This document shows positions 31,584 to 53,571 of a stretch of DNA of 57,625 bases, piece after piece. The translations under genes and the position numbers were made by a program. A model generated the notes under the pieces. That model was not told the origin of the DNA, did not search any database, and saw only the letters and a list, made by a program, of their open reading frames with translations. The DNA lies in the IMG/VR virus record IMGVR_UViG_3300036770_005327, positions 1 to 57,625 of that record, one strand, 5' to 3'. This stretch comes from a virus. Each line of letters starts with the position of its first letter. The first letter of the stretch is position 1.

Positions 31584-31897
31584 TTCACACTCTCCAGAAA
31601 CAATACCAGGTGCATTTTCTGCTCCGGGGTGATATCACTTTTTTCGATAGAGTCCATATTTAGAGGACTCCACTTTTCATACGTTCTCATATCGACGTCA
31701 GAAAAAGCTCTGAAATACCAGGCGTTTTGAAAACATCCAATCTGAAGGCACTTTTCTAAATCTGGTGGATACACCGAGTATTCAGCAGATATAGGGCCAA
31801 TGTTACAACAGGCAATACTAGATCCCACTCGATAAAAACCCGACTGCTGAATCGAAGAAAGCTCAGAGACAACAGGCAAAATCACATCATGCATCAT
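31577..31897 (-). CDS. hypothetical accessory protein next to the recombinase
   Basis: 106 residues from ATG 31897, which shares bases with the recombinase TGA, so the two are coupled. Residues include ILPVVSELSSIQQSGFYRVG and several cysteines (CCNIG, KCLQIGCFQNAW), with a short acidic C-terminus. Beta-rich; no known motif. With the following signal-peptide gene it could be a lysogeny-expressed host-modifying pair, but I have no sign of it beyond location. Confidence 0.55.
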   Translation of the reverse strand: MMHDVILPVVSELSSIQQSGFYRVGSSIACCNIGPISAEYSVYPPDLEKCLQIGCFQNAWYFRAFSDVDMRTYEKWSPLNMDSIEKSDITPEQKMHLVLFLESVKC

Positions 31898-33120
31898 CGG
31901 CGGGGTTCTCCGCATACAGCCTCCATTAAACCTAAATTACACAGCTTTTCATGCCATTTCTGTAACGACTCACGACACGAGTCCAGCAGCAGCGACTGAA
32001 TGTATGTCAGTGATAATACTCCAGCTTTATGATTAAGCAGTAACTCGCCTACGAAAAAATCAATTTTGTTTTCCTGGAACCACACCCGCGCTAGCTTACG
32101 CAAATCATGCGCAGAGCCTTTGCCAAGGCTTTGACTGACAAGATCGCTGGCATAGGATGAATTACATGATTTCTTAGGGTTGCGCTTTGCCGGAAACAGC
32201 CAGTTACCACGATGGCCGGCTTTACGTTGTGTCCGTTTGTGATACCGCAGCATATCCAGGGCAATACCTGTCAGCGGCAATATATGGCCCTGCGCGTTTT
32301 TGGTCTGCTCAGGCGCTAAGCGCAGCATTTTATTATCAACGTCGATATTTTCAGACCAGTTTAAACCGGCCACTTCATCGACTCTGAGCGCATGCAAAAG
32401 GATCATGCCTATCATCACACGTAGCCTGGGCTGTCGCTCTTTACCAATAGCACTAATCACAGCTTTTAAATGGCCGGCGTGGTACGCGGCTTTTTTCGGT
32501 TTAACTACTGCAGTGGTGAAGTTTTTCAGCCGCAATCCGTCCAGGGGATTATGCTCAATCATTTTACTACGATGCGCGGCCGCGAAAATTTGCTGCAATG
32601 TGCGACAGGCAAGATCAATATAGCTCAGAGCGTATTTTTTGTTGGCCATCACATCAACCAGTTTATTTTTGATGACCGGATGCGATAAATCGCACAAATT
32701 ACAATCACCCAGCTTAGGCATAAAATGCTGCGCGATAAGACTTTTAACATTGCGATTACGGCTATCACTGAAGTGATCGGTCAGCATATCCGACTGATAC
32801 CAGGACAACACATTTGCCACAGTTTTCATCTGGCCGAATTGAGATTTTTTTGCTGTGTCCTGGAATCGTTGGCCGTATGCGGCGTCCGCTAACATCTGTC
32901 TGGCAACACTTTTCAGAACTGGCACTGGCACATCAGGCCAGACGCCGATTTTTATCCACGCCGGCGAGGCCTCACCGCTGACACGTTTTACAAAAAACGC
33001 TGAGCCCCGATTCTTTTTTTTGTTTGGAACAAAAATTATTGGCAGCTGCTCATCTCTAAACCGGACACCGCCGGACAGCAACATCGGCATGCTTTTTTCA
33101 GAAAGCTTAATTTTGTCCAA
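31894..33120 (-). CDS. tyrosine recombinase
   Basis: 408 residues. The N-terminal region (RFRDEQLPIIFVPNKKK, then GVWPDVPVPVLKSVARQML) resembles the DUF4102 arm domain of P4-type integrases. The catalytic domain has LLHALRVDEVAGL (Arg, residue about 246), HDLRKLARVW (His and Arg, about 338), LLNHKAG and LTYI with the nucleophile Tyr about 372. It lies directly upstream of the heptamer-flanked parA promoter. It may integrate the genome or resolve dimers like Cre of P1; no attachment site was seen. The upstream spacer (33121-33154) is AT-rich. Confidence 0.8.
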   Translation of the reverse strand: MDKIKLSEKSMPMLLSGGVRFRDEQLPIIFVPNKKKNRGSAFFVKRVSGEASPAWIKIGVWPDVPVPVLKSVARQMLADAAYGQRFQDTAKKSQFGQMKTVANVLSWYQSDMLTDHFSDSRNRNVKSLIAQHFMPKLGDCNLCDLSHPVIKNKLVDVMANKKYALSYIDLACRTLQQIFAAAHRSKMIEHNPLDGLRLKNFTTAVVKPKKAAYHAGHLKAVISAIGKERQPRLRVMIGMILLHALRVDEVAGLNWSENIDVDNKMLRLAPEQTKNAQGHILPLTGIALDMLRYHKRTQRKAGHRGNWLFPAKRNPKKSCNSSYASDLVSQSLGKGSAHDLRKLARVWFQENKIDFFVGELLLNHKAGVLSLTYIQSLLLDSCRESLQKWHEKLCNLGLMEAVCGEPRR

Positions 33121-33297: not shown

Positions 33298-34053
33298 ATG
33301 CAGATTATGGCAGTAATCAACCGCAAGGGTGGAGTGGGGAAGACCACCATATCGGCGAACATAGCCGCAGAAATAGCCTTCAGCGGCAAAAGAGTTTTAT
33401 ACATAGACATCGACCCGCAAGCCAACGGCACGTATTTAATCAGTGCCGGCCAATCTGAGTTTGATGTTAGCATAGCCGACCTGCTAGACAATCCAAAAAC
33501 CAGCATTCACAGCGCAATAAAAAAAAGCCCATATGGGCTTGATTACATACCTAGTGTCAAAACGCTATCGCGAGTCTTTGAAAGCATTGTCGGCCGCTTT
33601 GGCCGAGAAATGATCTTAAAAAAATACCTGGAAAAAGTTGATGGCTATGATTATGTCGTCATCGACTGCCCACCAGATTCAGGCCTGGGCACACTCAATG
33701 CAATTGTGGCCGCAGGTGCATTTATCATTCCAGTGGACGGCGGCAGTTTCGCCCTGAATGGCCTAAGCGACTTACTGGAGCTGCTGGCTGAAGTCAAAGA
33801 GAATCTAGGGAAAAAGTATCAGTACATGATCATAAGAAATGAATACAGGCCAACAACCACGATCATGAATAGTTTCCTGGACAATCAATTAGCCAGCCAG
33901 GGCAGTCATGTTCTAAAAACGATGATAAGACACTCAGCGTCTCTCGAACAGGCAGTTGCAATGTGCATGCCTGTCCGTAGCTACAAACCAGGCTCTGTTG
34001 CAACACAGGACATTAAAGACGTTACGAAAGAAGTGATCGGGAGATTAAATTGA
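33298..34053 (+). CDS. parA: ParA-type partition ATPase
   Basis: 251 residues from ATG 33298, with AAAGGAT upstream. The deviant Walker A KGGVGKTT at residues 10-17, DIDPQ at 37-41 and YDYVVIDCPPDSG (about 116-128) are the signature of ParA/MinD-type ATPases. Length and lack of an N-terminal HTH are those of the small ParA subfamily (type Ib) that works with RHH-type centromere-binding proteins. It pushes plasmid copies apart along the nucleoid. The operon is flanked by phased heptamers, and the following gene encodes the RHH-like partner. Confidence 0.92.
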   Translation: MQIMAVINRKGGVGKTTISANIAAEIAFSGKRVLYIDIDPQANGTYLISAGQSEFDVSIADLLDNPKTSIHSAIKKSPYGLDYIPSVKTLSRVFESIVGRFGREMILKKYLEKVDGYDYVVIDCPPDSGLGTLNAIVAAGAFIIPVDGGSFALNGLSDLLELLAEVKENLGKKYQYMIIRNEYRPTTTIMNSFLDNQLASQGSHVLKTMIRHSASLEQAVAMCMPVRSYKPGSVATQDIKDVTKEVIGRLN

Positions 34054-38810: not shown

Positions 38811-38989
38811 GCACGCTTTTTGCTTTTTCTTTCCTGCTGAACCCGCCCCTCCGGGGCGGCTTAGTGCGGTGCCAGTTGTATCAATTAAAATTTTTATCAT
38901 CTCCCCTTAGCATCATAAATTTGTAGCACTGCCTACAGCTGTCGATTTATATAGTTGTTGCTCAGTTAACCAATCTAATTACGTCCTTA

Positions 38990-39041
38990 GGCAGCTGCTT
39001 TAGCAGCTTGCATAACCCAGTCCAGCCGCAGGCTGACATTA
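38990..39041. repeat. structured repeat, copy 1
   Basis: 52 bases with two hairpins: AGCTGCT-TT-AGCAGCT and CAGCC-GCA-GGCTG, joined by TGCATAA. It is paired with a second copy at 39082-39131 that keeps both stems. Confidence 0.7.
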
Positions 39042-39081
39042 TGCTTTTGATTTTTCAAAAACCAATCAGCATATATCGGTT

Positions 39082-39131
39082 GGCAGCTGCCTTGGCAGCT
39101 TGCATAATCGCCCAGCCGGAGGCTGACATTA
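39082..39131. repeat. structured repeat, copy 2
   Basis: 50 bases, the counterpart of 38990-39041. In the first stem one pair changes from T-A to C-G (AGCTGCC-TT-GGCAGCT), a compensating change. The second stem is CAGCC-GGA-GGCTG, with only the loop changed. Conservation of pairing between copies suggests the structure matters, as RNA or as single-stranded DNA. Confidence 0.75.
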
Positions 39132-39189: not shown

Positions 39190-39411
39190 CTAGAGCGATG
39201 TGCGGGTAATTCTACCGTTAGGATAAATAACTCTAAATCGACGTTTGCGGTTAATGGTATTTAGCACAAAGAAAGCCCTGATCACGCTACCCTGAGATCC
39301 CTGCCTGGCATAGCTCCCTAAATTGCGCACAAATTTACTCACAGAAAACACGAATTTTATACACAGGGGAAGTGTTGCAGAAAAACTTAACGGTTGAAAA
39401 ATGAGCAACAT
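39190..39411 (-). CDS. possible small protein downstream of rep (weak)
   Basis: 73 residues from ATG 39411, or about 50 from a GTG inside. The C-terminal part (NRKRRFRVIYPNGRITRTSL) is basic and could be real. It lies after the rep terminator within the putative origin and has no clear ribosome site, so it may be chance. Confidence 0.25.
   Translation of the reverse strand: MLLIFQPLSFSATLPLCIKFVFSVSKFVRNLGSYARQGSQGSVIRAFFVLNTINRKRRFRVIYPNGRITRTSL
39357..39365 (+). promoter_or_regulatory. DnaA box match TTATACACA
   Basis: TTATACACA fits the DnaA-box consensus TTATNCACA. It lies about 100 bases downstream of rep, within the presumed origin. A single nonamer can occur by chance, but its place is that expected of IncFII-type oriR. 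Confidence 0.5.
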
Positions 39412-39466: not shown

Positions 39467-40345
39467 TTAATGTGGTGGGCGCTTTTCCTTCTTGCCGCTT
39501 TCACTCACGCCTAGGCGGTGCAGAATGCTCCAGGCGTCAATATGCAACTGTCGAGGGGAATGTAAATAGAGATCACCATTGGCCAGCAATAGCTGTTTGC
39601 CAACATAATGCAGGCGTTCATCAACAGTCGTCAAACCGGCAAGGTAGGCTCGTTTTTTCTGCGCCCTGGCAGCATTTTTACGCCGCTCGTATGCTCGGTC
39701 CCAGGCCCATTTTTTACGCAAGGCTCGGGCTGCATTCAGCCGCATCGGTTGGCCAGATTGGATGTCTAAAATCTCTGCCAGTTTTTCCTGGTGGAGTTGA
39801 TGAAGTCGCTCTATGAGCGACTCATTCGCGCCTCCCGCCTCAAAAAACTTATCCGTTACAAACACCATAGACGGAAAGCAGATGCCATGGCTAGAGTTGT
39901 ACTGCGGTTTATATTCGTTAGTATCATAAGGCTGTAAAAGCCCAGCTGGCACAAAAACGCGCTTGATTATCCTGGTCATCCGGCTGTTGTTTACATCGAG
40001 CTCTGTCGCCAATTGTTCAAAACACTTTGTGGGCATCAGTGTTGCCATATCGAGGCAATCAAAAATAGCTAACCACACCTGATCGATCAGCTTTTTGCTG
40101 ACGTCTCTGAAATCTCGCTTTCGGTTCATCAGCTTGAAAGACTCAAGGATCACGAGGCTACTGTGGATCTTCTTCTTGGCTGCGATTCTAGCCAAAGCCC
40201 CCATCGCGCCAGGGAGTTTTTTATACGAGGATTTTCTGACGTGTTTCGGATTAGGATTGTGGCACTCAGTAGAGTGGTTGCCTCTGCGCCGGCGCGTCCG
40301 AGGTTTAACGCCGTCAGGCGCTTGGACATCAATATTATTTATCAT
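39467..40345 (-). CDS. replication initiator, IncFII/IncB RepA-like
   Basis: 292 residues from ATG 40345. The N-terminal 45 residues are basic (RTRRRRGNHSTECHNPNPK, then HVRKSSYKKLPGAM). The middle (DMATLMPTKCFEQLATELDV, then NNSRMTRIIKRVFVPAGLLQ) is a winged-helix pattern as in IncFII_repA initiators, and the C-terminal third is basic and helical. Such proteins bind the origin in cis and start theta replication. A weak ribosome site, a long leader with an antisense RNA and a possible activator pseudoknot fit an IncFII or IncB control scheme. Family assignment by layout and recalled pattern. Confidence 0.75.
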   Translation of the reverse strand: MINNIDVQAPDGVKPRTRRRRGNHSTECHNPNPKHVRKSSYKKLPGAMGALARIAAKKKIHSSLVILESFKLMNRKRDFRDVSKKLIDQVWLAIFDCLDMATLMPTKCFEQLATELDVNNSRMTRIIKRVFVPAGLLQPYDTNEYKPQYNSSHGICFPSMVFVTDKFFEAGGANESLIERLHQLHQEKLAEILDIQSGQPMRLNAARALRKKWAWDRAYERRKNAARAQKKRAYLAGLTTVDERLHYVGKQLLLANGDLYLHSPRQLHIDAWSILHRLGVSESGKKEKRPPH

Positions 40346-40361
40346 TTTATCAACTCAGTTG

Positions 40362-40389
40362 TTGACAGCAAATAAAAAGCCGTTACACT
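40362..40389 (+). promoter_or_regulatory. antisense RNA promoter in the rep leader
   Basis: TTGACA (40362-40367) and TACACT (40384-40389), 16 bases apart, on the strand opposite rep. Predicted start near 40396. Confidence 0.7.
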
Positions 40390-40395
40390 GAATCT

Positions 40396-40466
40396 TGCCC
40401 GCTCAAAGGCTTTATTGATTCAGTATAATTCCTGAAGAACCACATCCTGCCAGATGTGGTTTTTTG
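40396..40466 (+). ncRNA. antisense (counter-transcribed) RNA controlling rep
   Basis: A plus-strand RNA of about 70 bases is predicted from the promoter at 40362-40389 to the intrinsic terminator at 40438-40466. It is fully complementary to the rep mRNA leader. The major hairpin has a nine-pair stem (AACCACATC/GATGTGGTT) and a six-base loop (CTGCCA). On rep mRNA the same stem shows loop UGGCAG. Size and layout match CopA and RNAI-type inhibitors of IncFII and IncB plasmids. The RNA itself is a prediction. Confidence 0.75.
40438..40466 (+). terminator. terminator of the antisense RNA
   Basis: AACCACATC - CTGCCA - GATGTGGTT followed by six T. This is the same stem as the target hairpin on the rep mRNA. 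Confidence 0.85.
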
Positions 40467-40594
40467 CTTTTAGTACCTGTCAGATTTTATTTCATTTTGG
40501 TTTTAAGCTCGTTTTTGGCTATTTTTTGGCTCAAAATGAAACTTTACAAATCATTTTGAGCCCATTCTACACAGACAGCATATCATTGCAAACA

Positions 40595-40623
40595 TTTATA
40601 CTAGATCAAAGGCTGGATCGCAA
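40595..40623 (-). promoter_or_regulatory. rep promoter
   Basis: On the minus strand TTGCGA (40623-40618) and TATAAA (40600-40595), 17 bases apart. GATC sites at 40604 and 40616 lie in or at the edge of the promoter, and two more (40625, 40640) lie just upstream. Confidence 0.65.
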
Positions 40624-40643
40624 CGATCCACGTCCTGTGGATC
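40604..40643. promoter_or_regulatory. GATC (Dam) cluster at the rep promoter
   Basis: GATC at 40604, 40616, 40625 and 40640: four sites in 40 bases, within dyads (CGATCCAC-GTCCT-GTGGATCG at 40624-40644 and GGATCG-CAA-CGATCC at 40615-40629). Dam clusters mark origins and methylation-controlled promoters. Confidence 0.75.
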
Positions 40644-40656
40644 GCTTTGAAATGCG

Positions 40657-43600
40657 TTATTCCGCTAAATGCTGCAGTTTTTTCGACAAAATGACACCAT
40701 TCACAGCCCTATCACTCAAAGCCGCCCTCTGTTTGAGGCTTTTAATCCGGTGTGCGGCCGTAATCTTCATTGTGGGCTGCGCCAGGTTAAACGCCTCGAT
40801 GTCATCCAGTGTTTGTGCCACCAATAAATCGTCATCATTGCGTCTGGCCAGGGCGTAGCGATTTAGCAGCAACTTCCGGCGGTCCTGGATCCGCCGTGCA
40901 CTGGTTGCCAACGCATTGTTCTGGCCGTATTGCTCCGACACCTCTATCGGCGTAAAACCATTGGCCTGAAGTGCAATCTGCCACACCGATAGCTCGTCCA
41001 GAATTGGATCGCCGCGCTTAGTCTGCACGCCATCAGTCGCATAACGGACCGATTTAAACCAATCCCGCGCAAATTTTGGCACTGCAGACTCCCAGGCGCG
41101 CCCTGTGTGGCCCTCACGGGCTAATTGAGTGGCTTTACCCCAGCCGGCTAAAATGCCGTACATAGGGCCAAGTGCCTGCTCAGCGTAATACTGTACTGCG
41201 GCCTCCCCCTCAAGATCAGCTTCAGCATCGCGGAACCACAGGTTATTCATGCCGATCCGATTGGTTAGGTCCGCGCCAGTCACATTGCCAGGCAAACCAG
41301 ACATAATGACACTGGCGCCCGTTTCCCCAATGGCTTCAGCCAGCGCTTCGCGCACAGCCGCATCAAAATCAAACGGTTCGTCTTCATCATCCAACATGGT
41401 GTTGAAGATCCCCGCAATAACACTGTAAAGCGGCAGTCCTGCAGCACCAGCGAAAAACAGCGTCATCCCCAACATGCCGGCAAGTTGCTTTTGAGCAATC
41501 TTCTTATCTTCCCCACGCCCCCAAAAGCTTTGCTGGAAGTCACGGATTAACCGGTAGGTCATATTGACACTGTGCTGACGGAACAGCAGCAGAACGCGAG
41601 CCATATCGCCTTGCATGAAGCGTGGCCGGTTGCTGTTGGCATAATCAAAATGGCTGAGCTTGGTTAGCTCTATGGCTTCAGCAATCGCCTCTCGATGCGC
41701 TTTACTGTCGCCATATTGCTCACCGGCATACAACTTAGATAACTTGTTGTAAGCCAGTTTATAACTAGCCATAGCCGTGACTTCACGGTTAAAACGCTCC
41801 GCGTGGTGGAACATGAAGCCAGCGACTTGCATCACTTTGTGATATCTGGGCGAATACGCCACGCCACCATCGGCAATACCGGTCATATCATGCGCCATGG
41901 TTTTATCGATAATGCCGCTTTCTTCCAGCTCCCGGAATGCTGAAAGTTCACGGCCGTTCAAAGTTTTATCGACGTTACCTTTGCCTTTGATAAAAGCCTT
42001 ACTCATTTCAGCCAGCATTTTGCCAGCCTCTTTGTAAGTATATCGAGCCCCCAACACTGGCAAACCGACCATTGCCGTCTGCGTTATATTCACCAGCGCC
42101 GCTGCTGGCGTGGTTCCCAAGTACCAGAAAAAGCCAAAGCCTGTCAGCTTATTGGCCCACTCTGAGCCTTTAGGGTTTAGGATCCATTCGTTACGCTGCG
42201 TCAGCTCGTTGACAACTTGTGTTGCCCTGACCTTATCGTCAGCATTGGTTATAGTCCGGACTTCATCTTCCATAGCAAGCAGATGTGATTGCATATGATG
42301 TGTATTGCTTACCTTAGCAATCTGATAGGCCGTATGAAATTGGTTATGCGCAAAAGCGCGCAGCGCATCCTGGTCATAACCACTGACACCTTTGCGGTGG
42401 ATCATGTGCTTTCTGACACTTAAGTCTGGCGAGTGCTCTAAAAAGAGCTGATATAAATCATCCTGGATCTTACTGTTCTGGCTAAAGACAGGACTGAATT
42501 TCAGCAATAAGTCTTTCATAAAGCCGGCACTGACACCACTCATCATTGATGAGTATTCAAATTGATAACCACCTTCAACAACTACACCGGCCCCGCGCTG
42601 TTCTTCCATCCATTGTTGCATTTGCGCGTTGGTTTCAAACATGCTGAAAGCATGCAACTCACCCGTTTCGCGATCTTTGGCCACAGCTTTGTATTTACCG
42701 AATCGCTGCAGTGGAAAGTAAATACCGTTGAGCTCGTTCAGCTCAAATTCTTCGCGCATCATGCTAATTTGCGCGGCAGCCACACGTTTATCAGCGATCA
42801 GGTCTTCTATGCGCTTTTCCAGGGCAATTTTGCGCTGAGTGTTCATTTCAAGATAAGAATCTCGGACCTCGATAAACATCTGCTGATATTCAGCCGGCAG
42901 CGCCAGGAAGTCAGCGCGTAACTGGGCATAAGCTTCTTCCTGCATCGGCACTTTATCCATTGCCGCCTGGATCCGGGCACGGCGCTGCATGCCTCTGGCC
43001 ACAGCTTCAGCTTCGCCGTTGCGTGATTTGATAAAGGCTTTGGCTCGACTCATCAACATTTGATACGTCTGCCTGGTAATGGTCGGATAAAATTTTGACA
43101 TCGACGGATCAACACCCATCAGCGTAGCTTCGTGCATTAAATCAGCCAGCTTGGCTGATGCGGCTTTATCTTTACCAACCAGCTTGCGCCATTTATCTGC
43201 GGTGCCGTGGGTTAAATTAAGCAGGTTGTTGCGCTGGGCTTCCATTGCAGCCACTTGGGCGTTGTAGCGGCGCAAGCTTGGCAACAAATCGCCAGCAATG
43301 TCAGCAAGATAATTACGCGGCAATAACTGTAACATTGCTGGACGAGCTCTATCAGGCCACTTAGTTTTTACCGCCTGCCATAACTTAGCTGGCTTAAATG
43401 CCTCAACCCAACGCTGCATACGCTCTGCATTGATCTGCGATACAGCATCCGCAATCGCATTACCTGTCCGGGGCAACATAGCCGGCGCGTCAAAATCTAA
43501 ATCATTACGCACAGGCTGACTGCCTGCCTTTTGCAAGACTTCCTTCGCCTGAGACAAAATCAAGAACAGGTCATGCTCATTCGTTTTCGTCAGCTTGGTA

Positions 43601-46600
43601 ACTAAATCGCCCAAGCCTAACTCATGCAAAGCCTGTTTTAACTTGGCCAACAGGCGTCTGATAGAGGCCCATACACCGACTGGAACATCTGATTCTTTAA
43701 TGTGTGCAATCAATTCATCGACCAACGCGGCCTGAATATTGGGGTGATTTAAATCCTGGTAATATTTTTTATACCCCTCCAAATCCATCTGATACTTGGC
43801 AGCTAATTGCTTGAGCTTCGACTCCCCTAATTGCATCGCAATTTTGTTTAATTCATCGAAAACACCTTTACCGAACAGCTTCCTTACACCGTAGTGTCGC
43901 AGACGTTCATGGACCAGCAACTCTTGCAAGGACGGTAAATCACGAATATGCTGCAGGTTGATATAAACCTTCCCTTGGAAAAGAAAACCATGCGCATCTG
44001 GACTGGCAAAGGCCTGAATATCTTCAGGAAAATCAGAGAATTTTTCGGCAATAAAAGTACCACTGCCACTGTCAGCCAACCTGGCATCGAAGGCCTTAGC
44101 GAACATTCTGGCCTTTTGCAAAGTGATCCCTGGGCTGACTTGACCGCGGGATGGAACCATGCCGGTGTCGTCCCGCACAACATTTCCGAGGTGCGCCGGC
44201 GCATCAATGGCAGCTGACGTCACTTGATGGCCATCAAAACCAACAGCTGCAGATGGTATTGCATTACCCCCAGCTTGAACCCAAGCATCGCGATAGGATT
44301 GCAGGCCGCGCAGTTGCACCAATTTATTCAGCTCAGGCAGTACAGCCGCTAATTTTTGTTCAGAGAAAACCGCCGACATCACATTGCCGACACTAAAAAA
44401 CTCTGCGCCCATCGCCTTTTGCAGGGCTTCGCTAAACTTAATATCTTTAACAGCTTGGGTTTTGTTTGCCTTCGGGATCTCAATTTTCCATTCATCTGAA
44501 CGCACCGGCAATACGCGAATACTCTGCGACAGATCGAACACCCCAAGGTCTTTTAACAGCTTACGGTTGGATGTTAAGAACTTCTGCAGTACCGTCAAAT
44601 CACGTAACGCAAAATCACTGCCGGCATCAGTCCTGGAAAACTGATCATCCTTAAAGTTTTTCGGCATCAGGATCCCCTGGTGCACATCGCCACGATGATC
44701 AGTAAACGAAATGATCCGGCCGCTTAACTTTTTCGACCCCATGATTGCATTACCAGTGGCAACAAAGCGGGTTTCCCTGCGTTCTTCACCTTTGCGCACC
44801 GGCTTAAAGGTGTCATGGATCAACTTTTCATTGGCCACTGATGTTTTCGTTGCTGACACGCCGCCTTCCTGCAGGCTGGTCAACTGAGAAACTGACAAAT
44901 CAATTTGACGGATCCCGCTGTCCACCATAAAGGTGAATTTCACCTTACTACCAGAATACGGATTACCTTTGCCGGCGCGGTGTGAATCCTTCACGGCCAC
45001 AACAACCCCCTTCACCAGTTCTTCCGGCAGCTTGATGTTAAAATGGTGCCCTATTTGGAACCGCTTAAGCGCATCTTCCGTTGCCTGAACGGATGCACGA
45101 TAACGCTGCATAGCTTCTTCTGCAGTAGTTACATCCGCTTGCGCGGCCATAATCTTGCTGTTTTTCTTCGATTCATCCTTTGAATTAGTCTTTGTTTCAA
45201 CCTTGGCCAACTCTGCTTGCGCTCTTTTTAACGTGCCCTGCAGCTTTTTCTCAAACTGTCGGTCGCGCTCTTTGGCAGCCAAAATACCGGCAACGACCGC
45301 ATCAGGATCTTTAATCTTAGCCAGCGCTTTAAGGACATCATCAGCTGACGGCGGCTTACCTTGGTACTTGGTATCGACCTTATGCAAAAAGGTGTGGCCA
45401 CCGAACACGGTATCAGGGAACTTACCTTCATAAATAACCTTGGAGTCCAGGATCTTCGCATCCAAATCCATGGTCTTTGGCTCTAAATCATTCTGCCCAG
45501 TCTTGTCCAGGTACTCGATAAGATCGGCATACTCGTTTTCCAGCTCAGCATAAATTTCCTTTTGCTGCTTCACTGGCAACAACGCCATCCGGCCTGTAGC
45601 TTTTTCATAAATGCCTGGATAAACCACATCTTCAGCAGGAACCCCAAGCGACAGGTCACGCGCCACTTCCGGATATTCCCGTAAGTAGTCACTCATGACT
45701 TTATCGCCATACTTATTCATCATGTCCTGCGCTTTGAGATTCACATCTGAATCTGTGTTGGCACTGGTTTGGGCATTGAGCGATTTAAACTTTTTCGACG
45801 TTCTGGCCGCTGGCCGCTTTTCTGCAGGGATGGCCAATGACAACATGCTATAGCTTGGCAGCTCGATTTGGCCGGTGCGGTTAATGCGGCCAAGCATCTG
45901 CATCAGAATGTTAATGTCGGCCATAGCCTGCATAACAATCATGTGACGCGGTGATTGGTCTTTAAATTTTTCAGCGGCATGGATACTCAGGCCTGTTGAG
46001 CCAGCCACGTTTAAAATCAACGCATCTAAGCGACCATCATTAAAGGCGTCCACTGTGCCGCGCTTGTCGTTCTGTTCTTCTGCCGAACGAACGGCAAGGG
46101 TAGGAACTTCAGTTTGGTAGTCGATACGATAACCACGGCCAGTAATTTCACTCGTGCGGATCCCTGCTTTTTCCAGCTCATCACGTACATAGTCAATAGG
46201 GGATAACGGAATGCTGGATAAGTTTAAATCCTGAATAATTTCTTTGGCTTCAAGGTATAACATCTGAACATCAGCCGGTAGTTCATGCAGTGGAACATCA
46301 ATCGCACGAACATCCCCAGTTTCATCCGTCACTGAAATACGGCGGGTTCGGTCAAGTGCTTTTAACAGCACATCGCGATAATCAGCCCGGACAGGATCAC
46401 CTACGCTCAGCCCGTTTTCATCGACAAAACCATTTAAAAATGCCCCCATAGTATTCTGCAAAGCAATCACAGGCTTTTGGCCAGCTTTCTTCAACTCAAT
46501 GGCTTTATCAATCGTTGCACGGACCTTAAGACCAATCAGCAATTGTGAAATGAAATTATGCACAATGCTGGTAAAGTTTGAGTGGTCAACGCCTGATGCT

Positions 46601-49600
46601 GCCCGGTTGCCGGCACCTTTAGCTGATCCGCCTTCGTCCTGGTACTTTTGCGCCAACACATCAACAGCCAACTCATGAAACGCTTCGTCAGCAGCAACGA
46701 TCGCGCGCAGACCTTCAGTGACCTGATCTGCCAGCTGCTCGTGTGCCGCTTCATTTTCATAGTCAACTAAGGTGTCAATCTTGATACCTTCAAAAGAGCG
46801 TTCGCGGCGATACAGTTGGCCAGACTCTGCCAGCATGCCGGCAATCAAAGTTTGCAATGCTTCGCCGCCGGCGGATACCGCATCAACCAAATCTTCGACC
46901 TTATCAACCGAATCCATCAAATCGGTCCGGTAGAACACCGGTAAATTATCTGGTCTTTTGGCGTAAGTGGCTGACAAGTAAGTGACTGGAGAATTAGCGA
47001 TCGCTTCATAGATGAAGCCAGCGCGGGTTAAAGTCACATTGCCGGCAGATTTCTTTTCCCGAATACCTGCCGCGTTGTGTGCTTCGTCCAGGACAAAGAT
47101 GGCATTATCTTTGAGCGCGTTAATCAAACGGCGCTGACGATCGCCATCGAGCTGAGAATAAGTCAGGAACAGGACGTTATTATCAGCTGGCAACTTGCCT
47201 GTTTTGATAATTTCATCAAGGGTTTTCAGATGCGCCTGGCGCGATTGGGTTTTAAAAATTTTGGCATCACCAGCCTTGATAAAACCGTCCTGGTTAACGA
47301 TCAAAGGTGCCGCATCGGTTGAACCAATATCAGCCAGATCGTTATACATATCGGTAAAAAGGTTGTCAGTGACCGTGACGAAGATCGGCGTCTTACCTTC
47401 TTTGATGGCGTAACGGATGATACCGGCCGCTTGCCGGCCTTTGCCAACCCCGGTTTGGTCAGCAATGATGATGCCTTTGTTTTTGTTTTCCGCGTTATAG
47501 ATTGCGGCAGCAACCGTATCTACCTGAAGCGCCATGAAGGCTTTATGCGTTTCGGCAACCGAACCATAACCAAGCTTCTTGGTTACGTACTGGTCAACAT
47601 CGCCAATCTCAGCAACCATCTTCTGCATGGCGCGCTGACTGGCTTGCGCCATATTCACCGGCGTTAATGCGCCATCATTAAAGCCTTTACTAAGCGCTGG
47701 ATATAGCGCTTGGAACGAGGATCCGGAGTCTACGCCACCATCTGCAGGTGGCTGTTTAGATCTTCCAGCAGGCTCTGCAGTGTTTGCTGCAGGTACTGCT
47801 GTTTCACGTCCAGCGGTAACTGAACTTTCTGGTTGAACTGAACCTGGCTGACTAACAGGCTCAGACTTTCTGATGCTATCAACTGCTGGGCCAACTGCTG
47901 GGGCTGGGCTTCCGGCTCGATCGTCATTTCCAGCAATCCTGGTACCGCCGCTATCATTTCGTCCACCGGCTGTTGTTCTGCCTGCGCCAGCTTGATCAGC
48001 CTGGCCAATTTTGCGGTCAGTTTCGCTTCGAGCTGGACGCTCGACATTTGGTGAAATTCTTGGCATTGCACCATCAGCACCCGTTGCGCGGCTTGCGTTA
48101 GCTGAGGTGTCAGTGCTGGTACCCAAACTTTCAAGGAAGCGGTCATATACTTGGTTCCATGTTTCAATTCTTTCGATAGCGCCCGACTTAGGGCTCAATT
48201 TTTTACTGCTTTCTCGGCCATGTACAACAATAACACGAACTGGCCAACCAGCACCTTGCCGGCGATATAAATCACCATCGACTTCAAAGTGATCAACCAC
48301 ATTGTAATTGGAATAGAGGTAATTAAAAAACACCCGGTCAGACGCGCCAATCTCACCAGCTTCTTTGCTTGCGCCAATAATAATGGTGGCCTTACCATCA
48401 TCTTTAAGCGCCTGTAGGGCTTTGATAGTAATCAACTGGTCAATAGATTTGATGGTATAGCCATCCACCTTCACAGGTGAATCAAGCCGGCCAAACGGCG
48501 GATTCATCACAGCTGCATCAAACTTTTCAGCCGGGATGTATTCGGCAGCATCTTCGCTGGTCACATCTAAACCTTGCTGCGCCAGCTGGCCAGCGCGGCG
48601 CGGATCTAATTCATTGGCTTTTGCATGTTTCAGGTTAGCGCTGATCAGCAACATACCATTACCGGCCGTAGGTTCATACACGCTGGTTTCTTGCGTAACA
48701 CCAGCCAAACGGGCGGCCACGAACGCAAGCGGGGCCGGTGTGCTGTAAGCCATATTTTCCATACTGGTGCTGGACCGAACGTTCAGATTTGGCTGACGCT
48801 GATACATCTCAAGCAACCGGTCAAAAATCTCTTTGTCCGTACCGCCGGCGGCCACAATCTCACGAGCACGACGAACCAGTGCAAGCTCTAACACTTCCTG
48901 CGCTTCTTTCATCATTTCAGGCGTGACGCCAGAAGTCGGAATGCCATGATAATCCGCAACGACAGATTTTAACTGCCGGTTGTCCTGGATCTGGTCTAGT
49001 TTATCCTGCAGTTCATTGGCCAACGATTTAGCCGGCAACGCTTCCGTCTGCACATCTTCAATCAAAGTGCTGATATCCATCTTCCGGACATCTTTGGCGG
49101 TATCCATATCATCAGCAACAGCATCACTGATACCGTACTTTTCAGGGTTTGCCGCCATCGCGCCATAGGCTTCTTTTAAAAACGGTTTTACATCTTCATC
49201 AGCAATACCTACAACCCGAGTCGTGGCAATCACATCACGGACCCACTGCGCGAACTTTACCGCGCCTTCAGCGATAGACAGCGCACCGACTTCAGCTACG
49301 GCAAGCAGCACCTCAGGATCAACGCCGCTATTGAGCTGACCTTTACGAGACGCAATAAGCGCCTTAAGCTTTTCAGCGGCTTCACGTTTTTTATCACTGA
49401 TATTCTGAGCTGCACTATCAAGCTTTGACGCCGCTGGTTCTTTTGCTGGCGATTTTGCAGCGGCAGGCTTGCCCTTACTCTCGGCTGATTTTCCGCTGGC
49501 CGAGCTTTGAGCCATGATTTTTTCGATGCGCTGCTTATGCGGTGGCGACTTAATACCGGCTGATTTTTCTTCCCATATAATCCGCTGCTCCATATCGTCC

Positions 49601-52600
49601 AGCTTTTCGGCCTGTTCGATTGCCGATAACTCGGCCAATGTCTTTTTGAGCTTTAAGATATCGCCTGGCAAACCCCAATCGTCTGTTGCAGAAGCCCGAG
49701 CTTTCAACTCGGCCAAGTCCGCTGCATAATCCGGGGCTTTCACTGAAACTTCGCTCGACTCAGCAGATTCTGCGTTTTCAGACCGTGGCCGGGCCTCGCC
49801 CAGCGTCATCTTAGGATGCGAAGCCGGGTCGTCATTGAACGGCTTACTGCTGATATTCATCACAGCTTGCGGTCGCAGAATCACTAAATGTTCTGCGCCT
49901 TTGCGGATTTGTTTGGTTGGCGCAGTGCCATCTTTCATAAGAATCGCATCAGCACCCAAAGACAGCGCTATTTCACGCATTGCCGGGAGTGCTTTTCTGC
50001 GGCTTAATAACTCGATATAGCCCTGGCCCTGAGTCCCATCTTTGCCAACCAAGTTGTCCAGTAGTTTTCTATCGTTGTTGGCAACTCGCTCCCACTGGGT
50101 TCGCAGCCGCTCTATTTCTTCATCAGATACACCGGATCGCCCCAAAATGCCCTCGATGTCTATAGCCCCTAAACCAATCGACCTGCCTTTAAACACCAAG
50201 CCTTTATCGCCAATGGTGAGTAAAGCAGGCGCTTTCACCACAAATTCAGCAACGGTTTTTTCGCCTTTAGACAACTCGGCTTTTGCCTCGCTATAGGTTA
50301 TCCCTTTGGCTTTTGCGAGTTTTTCCGCGTTAACCGTATAATCCATATTCCGCGTAACATCGGTCGAGGCGTAATCTTCTGCTTCCTGCGGATCGCTGGT
50401 CAGATAAAACCCTTTTCCAAAGAATGAATCATCATTTGCGTCACTGTACTTGCTGGCATCAAACAACGAGCCTCTATGCCATATCTTATCGATATTAAAG
50501 CCATCATCTTTGGCTTGCAAAAGCTTCGCTGCACGGGAATTTGATGCTTCAACATTGGAAAATAATGGCGTTGTTTTTTTGCCCTGCTCGGTTTGAGTTT
50601 TAGCTACTGGCGTTTTGCTTCCCGCCTGGTTAACGCCATCGCCCTGTGAAGTGACCTTGATCGCTTCGCGCTTTTCATTAAGAGCAACCTGCTTTTCATA
50701 CTTCTGAATTTCAGCCTGCGTCCGGCCTGCATCAAAGTTTGCAGGCATGGCGGAAGGTAATACATTTGTAATACGTTCGGATAGCGCGCTATCGTGCTGC
50801 TTTGCACGAACAGCCAGCGCTTCTAACTGATTTTTAGCCGAATTAAACAAGCCAGTTTTATCGGCTTCGGGCGCAGCGCTTAACTTTTGCTGCTCAACGC
50901 GCTGGTCAGCTCGGCCTAAGATGCCAGGTATGGCTTTTTTCAGTTCATCAATCCGCGACTTGCTATAAACCCAACCCTCACCACCTTTGAGCTTCGGGTT
51001 AAAAACACCTTTGAGATTTTTCAGGGCGTCTTTGTGGGTCTTGGTATCCCCTCTGACGACTACGCTTTTATCGCTATAACGCTCGATGCGCAGCGCACCA
51101 AAATCAGCCACAGTGCTTTCCCACTGTTCGCGTTGCGTCACTGGTTTTTTGGTATCGCCGTTTTTAAGCCAGTCTTTGAACTGGTCCATGGTCATTTCTT
51201 TGACGGGGCCAATTTGCCAGCCAGCTGAATAATTGCGCTTGTAAGTTTGTTCTGCCGATTTTAAATCTGTCGCGCCCAGGACAACTTTATGTTCATCAAA
51301 TGATCCGTCCTTATTCATTTGGTCAACCACAAACACTTTGTCACTGTCCGGGCTATCACCGATAAACACATCAACATGATCACCATCAGCGCCTTCTGTG
51401 CGTTTGATGTAACCGTAGTGATCCTGCATGGTAACTGACCATGGCTTGCCTTTGGCATCGGTGCCTTTGCGCTCTGAACCCTTTGGGTTCTCAATTGCAA
51501 TATCCAGCCCCTGGACATTCACATGCCCTTTTTTGTAGTTGCCGGCTTCCTTCTGAGCTGCGCTCGGCTCTGGCAAATCATTCAGCGGGGATAAGGCGGC
51601 ACCAGCGGCGGCATCATCAATTACAGCTTTGATTTCGTTTACTTTTTCAGCACTGCCCACAGAACCACCCACAGAATCTGTGGATAAGTTTCCGGCGGCC
51701 TGACGCCAGGGCATGAGCATATTGACTTGCTCGTCATTGATACCGAAGGTATCCCGCAAAATCTCCGGATCAATCTTGCCCCGCTCCTCCAGCGGGAAAC
51801 TATCAATGAACCCCCTCGCGGCTACCATAACTTCATCGTCTGGCGCAACTGGTGCCGCAGCCTGAGGTGCGTTCACGATACCTGGTTCAGTGCTTGGAAC
51901 TGGCTCACCCGGATTACTCGCCAAAAACTTGGCCAGCTGACCTTCCGCTTTCGGTCTGAACTCCGGATTAATCAACCATTGACCGGCGGTATTAATTGCC
52001 AGGCCAATTTTTTCCGGCTTGCGCTGAACGTACTGCTGCAGCATTTCAGCGAACTGGGGGTTTTCTTTTGCGACAACACCAGACAGGATGGCAAAGTCGC
52101 TGGCATCTTCTTCTGGCGTGGGTGTCCAGGGCTTTTCACCTTCTGCAGGTTGTGGCGCATTGCCCATGTACTCCTGCAACCGGTGCATGGCATTTTTTCT
52201 AAAAGAGGCGCTGCCGAGATATTTATCCAGCACTGTAATCGCTGACACGGCGCGCTCTGGATCTTCTTTGACAATCTCAACGAGACCATCCACAAATTCA
52301 GGATGTTCAGCTGCAGCGCCGCTGGCCATCTCGATAAAGGTCGATTGCGTGTTGACCTTAGGGTCAATCACACTGGTTAATGGCGGGGTTTCAAACTCCT
52401 GCTCTAAATCAGGATATGCCGGCGGTCCCATTTCATCAGATGGTGCACTGAATTGCTCTGGCTCAGCGCCAGATTGCGCCGGCTGTTCTTTCGATGGCAG
52501 ACGCTTTTGGACGGCTCCAACAGCAGCTGGAACCGCTGCAGCCAGGCCACCGACCGCACCGCCTAAGATCCCCTCGTTGAGGGCCGCAACTGTGACACCT

Positions 52601-53571
52601 TCGTTTAAATCCTGAGTTGGATCGACATATTCTTGCCGTACCTGGTTGCCGGCAAACTGCTCCATGCCGCCTTGGGCAGCTTCGACACCAAACTCTGCAG
52701 CAACACCTGCACCTTTTGGCATGGCACCTGACAGAATGCGTGTCAGTGCGGCACTTCCCAAACCACCAACCAAAAGGTTCGATGTAAGCAATGTTGGATT
52801 TGTTTTAATTGCCGACCGCGCCTGTTCAGCAAGCTGGGTGCGGCTTGTTGCCAAAATATCTTCAGCTTCAGCACCTGGCATGGCTTTGGCATTTGCGCGC
52901 ACGATGGCCTGAAATTCTGGCGACACTTCCAGATCTTCATAATCAAGTGCTTCAACTTCATTACCGACATCAATGGCTTGTAAGCCGCCTGCAACTGCAT
53001 GGCCAGCAGCACCATAAGCCAAAGTATCTTTACCAAATGCGGCAAACTGGCCGGCCTTATCACCGAGATTTTTGGTTAAGAAAGTCTCAGTTGCCTTTTT
53101 TGCTGCAATTTCTGCCATTTCGGCAGTGCCTTTTTCTGCCAGCACTTTTTGCCTGGCAAGCTTCGCTACTTTGGTGACAGCCAGACTGGTGCCTTTAATC
53201 GCAGCACCACCTGCCAAGATGTCAGCATTTAAACCAATCACATGCCCGATTTGCATGGCAATGGCGCGGGGCGATGTCCACGCATCACCGGCAGTGATCG
53301 TATTATCTTTATCGACAAAGAACTGTTCTTGCATAGCGGTTTTACCCGCATTGGAAATAGTCGCAAGTTGCTCGTTTGCGCCCTCCTGGGCCCAGTCACG
53401 CACCCCATCTAAACCAAAGGTTTCACCGATGCCGGCAAGACCGTCATAGGCTCCTTTTTGCGTGGCGTCCACCACATCACCAATAAAACCTTGCCCGGTA
53501 TCAGCAGGCTTAAATTGCGCAGCTTGCTGCTGACGGTATAGGCTAAGTGCGTTTTGATCTAATTTGCTCAT
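40657..53571 (-). CDS. giant polyvalent DNA-ejection / antirestriction protein, 4304 residues
   Basis: One open frame of 12.9 kb. Residues 1-355 are Gly/Ala-rich with amphipathic helices, as in ejected internal proteins. About 665-800: polyvalent pyrophosphatase-like domain (GYIKRTEGADGDHVDVFIGD). About 1025-1190: ADP-ribosyltransferase-like (IWHRGSLFDASKYS, FGKGFYLTSD). About 1600-1800: N6-methylase with NPPFGRLD. About 2020-2640: Strawberry-notch-type helicase with TGVGKGRQ (2039), DEAH (2162) and QMLGRINRTGQ. About 3220: zincin-like HERLRH. About 3619: PLQRFG. Near 4020: a hydrophobic segment. Methylase plus helicase recall DarB of P1. It overlaps the preceding gene by four bases and probably enters the cell with the DNA. 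Confidence 0.85.
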   Translation of the reverse strand: MSKLDQNALSLYRQQQAAQFKPADTGQGFIGDVVDATQKGAYDGLAGIGETFGLDGVRDWAQEGANEQLATISNAGKTAMQEQFFVDKDNTITAGDAWTSPRAIAMQIGHVIGLNADILAGGAAIKGTSLAVTKVAKLARQKVLAEKGTAEMAEIAAKKATETFLTKNLGDKAGQFAAFGKDTLAYGAAGHAVAGGLQAIDVGNEVEALDYEDLEVSPEFQAIVRANAKAMPGAEAEDILATSRTQLAEQARSAIKTNPTLLTSNLLVGGLGSAALTRILSGAMPKGAGVAAEFGVEAAQGGMEQFAGNQVRQEYVDPTQDLNEGVTVAALNEGILGGAVGGLAAAVPAAVGAVQKRLPSKEQPAQSGAEPEQFSAPSDEMGPPAYPDLEQEFETPPLTSVIDPKVNTQSTFIEMASGAAAEHPEFVDGLVEIVKEDPERAVSAITVLDKYLGSASFRKNAMHRLQEYMGNAPQPAEGEKPWTPTPEEDASDFAILSGVVAKENPQFAEMLQQYVQRKPEKIGLAINTAGQWLINPEFRPKAEGQLAKFLASNPGEPVPSTEPGIVNAPQAAAPVAPDDEVMVAARGFIDSFPLEERGKIDPEILRDTFGINDEQVNMLMPWRQAAGNLSTDSVGGSVGSAEKVNEIKAVIDDAAAGAALSPLNDLPEPSAAQKEAGNYKKGHVNVQGLDIAIENPKGSERKGTDAKGKPWSVTMQDHYGYIKRTEGADGDHVDVFIGDSPDSDKVFVVDQMNKDGSFDEHKVVLGATDLKSAEQTYKRNYSAGWQIGPVKEMTMDQFKDWLKNGDTKKPVTQREQWESTVADFGALRIERYSDKSVVVRGDTKTHKDALKNLKGVFNPKLKGGEGWVYSKSRIDELKKAIPGILGRADQRVEQQKLSAAPEADKTGLFNSAKNQLEALAVRAKQHDSALSERITNVLPSAMPANFDAGRTQAEIQKYEKQVALNEKREAIKVTSQGDGVNQAGSKTPVAKTQTEQGKKTTPLFSNVEASNSRAAKLLQAKDDGFNIDKIWHRGSLFDASKYSDANDDSFFGKGFYLTSDPQEAEDYASTDVTRNMDYTVNAEKLAKAKGITYSEAKAELSKGEKTVAEFVVKAPALLTIGDKGLVFKGRSIGLGAIDIEGILGRSGVSDEEIERLRTQWERVANNDRKLLDNLVGKDGTQGQGYIELLSRRKALPAMREIALSLGADAILMKDGTAPTKQIRKGAEHLVILRPQAVMNISSKPFNDDPASHPKMTLGEARPRSENAESAESSEVSVKAPDYAADLAELKARASATDDWGLPGDILKLKKTLAELSAIEQAEKLDDMEQRIIWEEKSAGIKSPPHKQRIEKIMAQSSASGKSAESKGKPAAAKSPAKEPAASKLDSAAQNISDKKREAAEKLKALIASRKGQLNSGVDPEVLLAVAEVGALSIAEGAVKFAQWVRDVIATTRVVGIADEDVKPFLKEAYGAMAANPEKYGISDAVADDMDTAKDVRKMDISTLIEDVQTEALPAKSLANELQDKLDQIQDNRQLKSVVADYHGIPTSGVTPEMMKEAQEVLELALVRRAREIVAAGGTDKEIFDRLLEMYQRQPNLNVRSSTSMENMAYSTPAPLAFVAARLAGVTQETSVYEPTAGNGMLLISANLKHAKANELDPRRAGQLAQQGLDVTSEDAAEYIPAEKFDAAVMNPPFGRLDSPVKVDGYTIKSIDQLITIKALQALKDDGKATIIIGASKEAGEIGASDRVFFNYLYSNYNVVDHFEVDGDLYRRQGAGWPVRVIVVHGRESSKKLSPKSGAIERIETWNQVYDRFLESLGTSTDTSANASRATGADGAMPRISPNVERPARSETDRKIGQADQAGAGRTTAGGRNDSGGTRIAGNDDRAGSPAPAVGPAVDSIRKSEPVSQPGSVQPESSVTAGRETAVPAANTAEPAGRSKQPPADGGVDSGSSFQALYPALSKGFNDGALTPVNMAQASQRAMQKMVAEIGDVDQYVTKKLGYGSVAETHKAFMALQVDTVAAAIYNAENKNKGIIIADQTGVGKGRQAAGIIRYAIKEGKTPIFVTVTDNLFTDMYNDLADIGSTDAAPLIVNQDGFIKAGDAKIFKTQSRQAHLKTLDEIIKTGKLPADNNVLFLTYSQLDGDRQRRLINALKDNAIFVLDEAHNAAGIREKKSAGNVTLTRAGFIYEAIANSPVTYLSATYAKRPDNLPVFYRTDLMDSVDKVEDLVDAVSAGGEALQTLIAGMLAESGQLYRRERSFEGIKIDTLVDYENEAAHEQLADQVTEGLRAIVAADEAFHELAVDVLAQKYQDEGGSAKGAGNRAASGVDHSNFTSIVHNFISQLLIGLKVRATIDKAIELKKAGQKPVIALQNTMGAFLNGFVDENGLSVGDPVRADYRDVLLKALDRTRRISVTDETGDVRAIDVPLHELPADVQMLYLEAKEIIQDLNLSSIPLSPIDYVRDELEKAGIRTSEITGRGYRIDYQTEVPTLAVRSAEEQNDKRGTVDAFNDGRLDALILNVAGSTGLSIHAAEKFKDQSPRHMIVMQAMADINILMQMLGRINRTGQIELPSYSMLSLAIPAEKRPAARTSKKFKSLNAQTSANTDSDVNLKAQDMMNKYGDKVMSDYLREYPEVARDLSLGVPAEDVVYPGIYEKATGRMALLPVKQQKEIYAELENEYADLIEYLDKTGQNDLEPKTMDLDAKILDSKVIYEGKFPDTVFGGHTFLHKVDTKYQGKPPSADDVLKALAKIKDPDAVVAGILAAKERDRQFEKKLQGTLKRAQAELAKVETKTNSKDESKKNSKIMAAQADVTTAEEAMQRYRASVQATEDALKRFQIGHHFNIKLPEELVKGVVVAVKDSHRAGKGNPYSGSKVKFTFMVDSGIRQIDLSVSQLTSLQEGGVSATKTSVANEKLIHDTFKPVRKGEERRETRFVATGNAIMGSKKLSGRIISFTDHRGDVHQGILMPKNFKDDQFSRTDAGSDFALRDLTVLQKFLTSNRKLLKDLGVFDLSQSIRVLPVRSDEWKIEIPKANKTQAVKDIKFSEALQKAMGAEFFSVGNVMSAVFSEQKLAAVLPELNKLVQLRGLQSYRDAWVQAGGNAIPSAAVGFDGHQVTSAAIDAPAHLGNVVRDDTGMVPSRGQVSPGITLQKARMFAKAFDARLADSGSGTFIAEKFSDFPEDIQAFASPDAHGFLFQGKVYINLQHIRDLPSLQELLVHERLRHYGVRKLFGKGVFDELNKIAMQLGESKLKQLAAKYQMDLEGYKKYYQDLNHPNIQAALVDELIAHIKESDVPVGVWASIRRLLAKLKQALHELGLGDLVTKLTKTNEHDLFLILSQAKEVLQKAGSQPVRNDLDFDAPAMLPRTGNAIADAVSQINAERMQRWVEAFKPAKLWQAVKTKWPDRARPAMLQLLPRNYLADIAGDLLPSLRRYNAQVAAMEAQRNNLLNLTHGTADKWRKLVGKDKAASAKLADLMHEATLMGVDPSMSKFYPTITRQTYQMLMSRAKAFIKSRNGEAEAVARGMQRRARIQAAMDKVPMQEEAYAQLRADFLALPAEYQQMFIEVRDSYLEMNTQRKIALEKRIEDLIADKRVAAAQISMMREEFELNELNGIYFPLQRFGKYKAVAKDRETGELHAFSMFETNAQMQQWMEEQRGAGVVVEGGYQFEYSSMMSGVSAGFMKDLLLKFSPVFSQNSKIQDDLYQLFLEHSPDLSVRKHMIHRKGVSGYDQDALRAFAHNQFHTAYQIAKVSNTHHMQSHLLAMEDEVRTITNADDKVRATQVVNELTQRNEWILNPKGSEWANKLTGFGFFWYLGTTPAAALVNITQTAMVGLPVLGARYTYKEAGKMLAEMSKAFIKGKGNVDKTLNGRELSAFRELEESGIIDKTMAHDMTGIADGGVAYSPRYHKVMQVAGFMFHHAERFNREVTAMASYKLAYNKLSKLYAGEQYGDSKAHREAIAEAIELTKLSHFDYANSNRPRFMQGDMARVLLLFRQHSVNMTYRLIRDFQQSFWGRGEDKKIAQKQLAGMLGMTLFFAGAAGLPLYSVIAGIFNTMLDDEDEPFDFDAAVREALAEAIGETGASVIMSGLPGNVTGADLTNRIGMNNLWFRDAEADLEGEAAVQYYAEQALGPMYGILAGWGKATQLAREGHTGRAWESAVPKFARDWFKSVRYATDGVQTKRGDPILDELSVWQIALQANGFTPIEVSEQYGQNNALATSARRIQDRRKLLLNRYALARRNDDDLLVAQTLDDIEAFNLAQPTMKITAAHRIKSLKQRAALSDRAVNGVILSKKLQHLAE

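What the first reader, a model, noticed from the sequence alone, without database searches (positions are those of the whole stretch)
40346..40656. Antisense-RNA copy control with a possible activator pseudoknot for rep
A plus-strand promoter (TTGACA-N16-TACACT) and a terminator (nine-pair stem, six T) define an RNA of about 70 bases opposite the rep leader. On the mRNA the stem's loop is UGGCAG; CUGUCA, about 20 bases before the rep start, can pair with all six bases (one G-U). IncB and IncI replicons use just such a loop-to-leader pseudoknot to turn on RepZ, and the antisense RNA blocks it. Finding this in a phage genome is unusual.
Basis: partly seen in the sequence, partly recalled or inferred. 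Interest (0 to 1): 0.85.

Follow-up and report, generated by a model that had tools for sequence, protein, structure and literature searches.

The report
Antisense-RNA-controlled replicon in a phage
A phage that probably lives in its host as a plasmid carries a plasmid-type replication gene with a built-in small antisense RNA that very likely limits its copy number; the parts are a known kind, but this phage version lacks the leader peptide of the classic plasmids, and the proposed activating pseudoknot is possible rather than shown.

Summary
On the plus strand, TTGACA-N16-TACACT and a terminator hairpin define a ~70-nt RNA opposite the rep leader. No other place in the 57.6 kb, on either strand, has such a promoter-terminator unit, and shuffles give none. 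Rep passes the NCBIfam cutoff for RepA_IncFII_LM, the family of IncFII, IncL/M and IncI initiators, so antisense copy control is the best reading. The activator pseudoknot (loop UGGCAG with CUGUCA, 17 nt before the rep ATG) is possible but unproven. Its position matches true pseudoknots of plasmid relatives (15 nt), but chance probability is 0.06, the same bases form the antisense -35 box, and an upstream UGACAG pairs CUGUCA better. The leader does not match Rfam PK-repBA and lacks the ATG leader peptide of all nine plasmid controls. Eleven relatives on phages, phage-plasmids or small tape-measure plasmids share its layout: short hairpin I, hairpin II carrying the antisense promoter, no leader peptide, mostly no pseudoknot. 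In most of them the 3' arm of hairpin II can pair with the rep start region, suggesting that antisense binding closes the ribosome site, as proposed for pSK41. For this window alone that switch is only weakly supported. New variant of a known kind.

The parts
39467..40345 (-). rep gene, 292 aa, RepA_IncFII_LM family initiator
   Evidence: NCBIfam NF040977, 88.5 bits against cutoff 70; aligned with plasmid RepA; no Pfam match
40362..40389 (+). promoter of the antisense RNA, TTGACA-16-TACACT
   Evidence: phage PhiPS02 has TTGCAG-17-TACACT at the same place (sequence)
40396..40466 (+). predicted antisense RNA, about 71 nt
   Evidence: inferred from promoter and terminator; fold; no transcript data
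40438..40465 (+). terminator of the antisense RNA; its complement is hairpin I of the rep leader
40447..40452 (-). hairpin I loop UGGCAG
40363..40368 (-). CUGUCA, proposed pseudoknot target; overlaps the antisense -35 box and the 5' arm of a hairpin over the rep start
40477..40482 (-). UGACAG, perfect nested partner of CUGUCA (-6.3 kcal/mol), favoured in the minimum-energy fold of the full leader
40383..40428 (-). hairpin II, UUAUACUGAAUC/GAUUCAGUGUAA, also carries the antisense -10 box
40352..40359 (-). ACUGAGUU, ribosome-site region that can pair with GAUUCAGU (40387-40394) once hairpin II is opened
40342..40419 (-). open frame of 25 codons starting at AUC, preceded by AGGA, stop overlapping the rep ATG; possible degenerate leader peptide
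   Evidence: no ATG/GTG start with a ribosome site
40564..40592 (-). candidate rep promoter, TTTGCA-17-TAGAAT
   Evidence: 9/12 only
39357..39365 (+). DnaA box TTATACACA, 101 nt after the rep stop, likely origin side
   Evidence: similar boxes 138-155 nt after RepA in many relatives

Best explanation
This is the basic replicon of a phage-plasmid. A short antisense RNA transcribed across the rep leader sets copy number by repressing Rep translation (the RNA, the repression and the plasmid life style are inferred from sequence). The most likely switch: in free mRNA, hairpin II holds its own 3' arm, and CUGUCA is held by UGACAG upstream or by the hairpin I loop, so the rep ribosome site is fairly open. 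The antisense RNA first contacts the hairpin I loop, then covers hairpin I and the 5' arm of hairpin II. The freed 3' arm GAUUCAGU then pairs with ACUGAGUU at the rep ribosome site and closes it. This needs no leader peptide.
For: Unique promoter-terminator unit. Rep family. Leader folds far better than shuffles, z -5. With the antisense region made unavailable, the predicted cost of opening the rep ribosome site rises from 3.0 to 8.7 kcal/mol (0 of 150 shuffles reach the change), and the closing hairpin has z -2.3, 3 of 200 shuffles. Comparative: 11 relatives (L002-L005, L013-L015, L051, L052, L054, L055) have a short hairpin I and no ATG leader peptide. The hairpin II 3' arm is complementary to the rep start region beyond shuffles (p 0.002 to 0.05 in at least one of two windows tried) in 10 of the 11, with sequences that differ between lineages, and in 0 of 9 plasmid controls. 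Those examined in context lie next to phage tail genes or in complete phage-plasmids with capsid, portal, terminase and ParA.
Against: In the window itself the arm-to-start complementarity is weak (p 0.10), and the change in opening cost depends on how much 5' leader is included: with the leader cut at 40480 it is +2.5 kcal/mol, 4 of 60 shuffles. L002, L013 and L052 show little or boundary-dependent change in opening cost. The relatives are only about 22-31% identical in Rep and none is close. All structures are thermodynamic predictions; no transcript, binding or copy-number data exist.
Confidence: 0.55

Rival explanations
1. IncI/IncL-M type switch: the hairpin I loop UGGCAG pairs with CUGUCA, the pseudoknot opens the rep start, and the antisense RNA blocks it by binding the loop.
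For: Six pairs with the target ending 17 nt before the start; in nine of ten true pseudoknot plasmids tested it ends 15 nt before, and their single-sequence chance values (0.01-0.33) are no better than here (0.06). Loop UGGCAG/CUGUCA against plasmid UGGCGG/CCGCCA differs by one compensatory change (G-C to A-U) and one C to U. CUGUCA lies in the 5' arm of a hairpin before the start, as in the plasmids. Phage PhiPS02 has loop CGGCAA and UUGCCG, six Watson-Crick pairs, 19 nt before the start.
Against: No PK-repBA match. No ATG leader peptide with ribosome site, present in 9 of 9 controls. The same bases form the antisense -35 box. UGACAG upstream is a better nested partner. Holding loop and target free costs 8.0 kcal/mol against -5.7 gained in the short leader. 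The match is absent in the sister of PhiPS02 (L052, Rep 91% identical) and in nine other relatives of this layout.
Confidence: 0.3
2. The antisense RNA acts mainly by premature termination of the rep mRNA in the leader, as in pT181 or pIP501.
For: AAAGCC...GGCUUU followed by UUAUUU in the leader could form a terminator-like stem when hairpin II is opened (read from the sequence).
Against: The promoter-terminator scan finds no terminator on the rep strand in this leader. The 5' half of that stem would itself be covered by the antisense RNA.
Confidence: 0.07
3. No antisense control: the plus-strand promoter is fortuitous or serves another gene, and the hairpin is a terminator or operator.
For: The promoter has a 16-nt spacer and a 4/6 -10 box. 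A 134-aa plus-strand frame starts inside the hairpin.
Against: That frame has no family match and overlaps the end of the giant gene. The unit is unique in the window and absent from shuffles. The same layout recurs in relatives whose initiator family is controlled by antisense RNA.
Confidence: 0.08

Closest known systems
IncL/M and I-complex replicons (RNAI, repB/repY leader peptide, repA/repZ; Rfam RF01089 PK-repBA; pOXA-48, ColIb-P9)
   Same: Rep family, antisense RNA of about 70 nt over hairpin I, a loop-complementary hexamer 15-17 nt before rep, a hairpin over the rep start
   Different: no PK-repBA match, short nine-pair hairpin I, no ATG leader peptide coupled to rep
IncFII replicon of R1 type (CopA, Tap, RepA; Rfam RF00042)
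   Same: Rep superfamily, antisense RNA over the leader, DnaA box after rep
   Different: no CopA match and no tap-like leader peptide; L007 and L011 do match CopA
pSK41 RNAI-rep of staphylococci (described in PMC5703833)
   Same: proposed logic: antisense binding about 100 nt upstream induces a stem-loop that hides the rep ribosome site
   Different: Gram-positive plasmid of the RepA_N initiator family; RNAI has two stem-loops; no sequence relationship
Phage-plasmid replicons of Vibrio phage PhiPS02, Vibrio alginolyticus p1, Serratia pJSRIV006_2, Vibrio phage 10N.237.312.C11_PE002A
   Same: RepA of the IncFII superfamily near virion genes, short hairpin I, antisense terminator, no leader peptide
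   Different: Rep only about 22-31% identical, loops and hairpin II sequences differ, control region not previously described as far as the held papers show

Membership tests
RepA_IncFII_LM initiators | NCBIfam NF040977 above its curated cutoff | tested here: met
   88.5 bits against 70
IncL/M and I-complex pseudoknot replicons | Rfam RF01089 PK-repBA match | tested here: not met
   none at gathering or relaxed E-value; L008, L009, L010, L016-L020 and L034 do match
IncL/M and I-complex pseudoknot replicons | hairpin I loop complementary to a site just before rep | tested here: inconclusive
   six pairs, p 0.06, but -35 overlap and a better partner
IncL/M and I-complex pseudoknot replicons | translationally coupled leader peptide with ribosome site | tested here: not met
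   only a TTG 9-codon frame without ribosome site, or a 25-codon frame from AUC
IncL/M and I-complex pseudoknot replicons | antisense RNA transcribed against hairpin I | tested here: inconclusive
   promoter and terminator present and unique; transcript not testable here
IncFII CopA/Tap replicons | Rfam RF00042 CopA match | tested here: not met
pSK41-type antisense-induced ribosome-site closure | antisense binding induces a hairpin over the rep ribosome site | tested here: inconclusive
   predicted cost 3.0 to 8.7 kcal/mol, weaker with a shorter leader
pSK41-type antisense-induced ribosome-site closure | RepA_N initiator | tested here: not met
   Rep is RepA_IncFII_LM
Phage-plasmid | virion genes together with plasmid replication and partition genes | tested here: met
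   portal, capsid, terminase, ParA, rep
Phage-plasmid | extrachromosomal circular prophage | not testable with these tools
   record has no end repeat; an integrase is also present

The most novel reading that the evidence does not exclude
RepA_IncFII_LM replicons on phage-plasmids form their own control class, found on several unrelated phage backbones: a short antisense RNA and no leader peptide, with hairpin II acting as a toggle whose released arm closes the rep start. Each lineage uses different sequences for the same switch.
Probability: 0.35. Interest if true: 0.65.

Novelty: new variant of a known kind. Interest (0 to 1): 0.5.

Why it matters
If right, it gives phage-plasmids a copy-number control of the IncFII/IncL-M kind in a stripped-down form that works without the leader peptide long held to be central to it, and predicts which phages and plasmids exclude each other through their antisense loops. 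It also offers a small system for asking how a phage switches from plasmid to lytic replication.

Tried and rejected
Close relatives of rep, ParA or the giant gene's neighbourhood in IMG/VR: no close rep or ParA; only distant relatives of the giant protein, and none of the four neighbourhoods read shows a rep beside it. Close rep relatives in GTDB genomes or by genome sampling: none above about 35%. DNA-level matches to the rep region: none. Rfam on the leader: only chance matches. Solved structures: none. The PK-repBA mention in Aeromonas ARM81 concerns a small plasmid, not its phage. The 134-aa frame on the plus strand was dropped. Further RepA loci from the family of G002 (Serratia) showed no short-hairpin leader in this screen.

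Full report
What was checked. The plus strand at 40362-40466 carries TTGACA-N16-TACACT and, 48 bases downstream, AACCACATC-CTGCCA-GATGTGGTT followed by T. The nine-pair stem leaves four T, not six, but the hairpin folds well. A scan of the whole window for a promoter of at least 10/12 followed at 40-130 nt by a terminator finds this one place on either strand, and none in shuffles. The antisense unit is real as a sequence feature.

What it lies opposite. The gene at 39467-40345 on the minus strand is an initiator of the RepA_IncFII_LM family. It aligns over its full length with plasmid RepA and ends in the same PPH as several of them. A DnaA box lies 101 nt after its stop; many relatives have one 138-155 nt after RepA. 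The genome has portal, capsid, terminase, ParA and integrase genes and a 4304-aa polyvalent protein just upstream of rep. This is a phage-plasmid by gene content; circularity could not be tested.

Family background. Relatives fall into three leader types. Type 1 (L008, L009, L010, L016-L020, L034, with L056 and L057 by sequence) has a coupled ATG leader peptide and a loop-leader pseudoknot; those in the first group match Rfam PK-repBA. The loop-target pairs covary (UGGCGG/CCGCCA, UGGCCG/CGGCCA, UGCCGG/CCGGCA, UGGCGA/UCGCCA), and in nine of ten plasmids tested the target ends exactly 15 nt before rep. Type 2 (L007, L011, and L058 by sequence) has a leader peptide but no loop match; L007 and L011 match CopA. 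Type 3 (L002-L005, L013-L015, L051, L052, L054, L055) has a hairpin I of about 8-13 pairs, a hairpin II that carries the antisense promoter, and no ATG leader peptide. The window belongs to type 3 by layout. Type 3 members examined in context lie next to phage tail genes, or in complete phage-plasmids.

The pseudoknot. Loop UGGCAG and CUGUCA form six pairs ending 17 nt before the ATG. The chance level is 0.06 for the last 45 nt, which is as good as several true pseudoknots taken singly. Against it: CUGUCA overlaps the complement of the -35 box; UGACAG at 40477-40482 pairs CUGUCA perfectly and is the partner in the minimum-energy fold of the full leader; there is no canonical leader peptide to open the start hairpin; and among type 3 relatives only PhiPS02 (L051; also its near-identical copy L053) has a comparable match, which its 91%-identical sister L052 lacks. 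I leave it open at 0.3.

The toggle. Blocking the antisense-covered part of the leader in folding raises the cost of opening the rep ribosome site from 3.0 to 8.7 kcal/mol, because the freed 3' arm of hairpin II pairs with the ribosome site. The direction of change is positive in all type 3 relatives (1.1 to 5.7) and near zero in most type 1 and 2 controls. Direct arm-to-start complementarity beats shuffled start regions in 10 of 11 type 3 relatives at p 0.05 or better in at least one of two windows tried, and in 0 of 9 controls. These relatives make up only about four lineages, and two windows were tried, so the values are not independent. For the window alone p is 0.10, and the folding effect shrinks with a shorter 5' leader. 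The mechanism is thus inferred mainly from relatives. The same logic has been proposed for staphylococcal pSK41 (PMC5703833).

Literature. Control of IncL/M repA by the leader peptide RepB and RNAI is described in PMC12365149, and of I-complex plasmids in PMC10286972 and PMC10724649. Pseudomonas control modules with a putative antisense RNA but no leader peptide gene are reported in PMC5304414. RNA-based prophage origins exist in mycobacteriophages (PMC7157519). IncFII typing of some phage-plasmid groups is listed in PMC11652158. The original pseudoknot papers are not held and are known to me only through these.

Verdict. Antisense control of a phage-plasmid rep is likely. The pseudoknot is possible but not shown. 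A leader-peptide-free switch is the better-supported reading for this class. New variant of a known kind; interest 0.5.

Noticed in passing
window 40657-53571 (-): 4304-aa polyvalent protein with inorganic pyrophosphatase, strawberry-notch-type helicase and LPD39 domains directly upstream of rep on the same strand.
   Followed up: partly
window 38988-39129: Two direct copies of a ~45-bp unit (TAATGTCAGCCT.CGGCTGG...TTATGCAAGCTGC.AAGGCAGCTGCC) between rep and the next gene; could be a partition site, iterons or an attachment site.
   Followed up: no
window 40528-40562: Perfect 12-base inverted repeat GGCTCAAAATGA/TCATTTTGAGCC around the inferred rep transcription start; operator or 5' mRNA hairpin.
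   Followed up: no
window 31894-33120 and 33298-34053: Tyrosine integrase and ParA side by side, so the phage may both integrate and live as a plasmid.
   Followed up: no
L003, L004, L005: Vibrio plasmids of 14-17 kb with a tape measure gene just before repA and no obvious full virion set in the stretch seen; possible phage satellites with the same antisense layout.
   Followed up: partly
L051 and L052 hairpin I loops: PhiPS02 and V. alginolyticus p1 have 91% identical RepA but different loops (CGGCAAA, CGCTAA); CGCTAA also occurs in the distant L002, L013 and L014. Looks like incompatibility-driven loop switching.
   Followed up: partly
window 40342-40419 (-): 25-codon frame starting at AUC where plasmids have the leader peptide ATG, stop overlapping the rep ATG; a decayed or weak leader peptide, or a chance frame.
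   Followed up: partly
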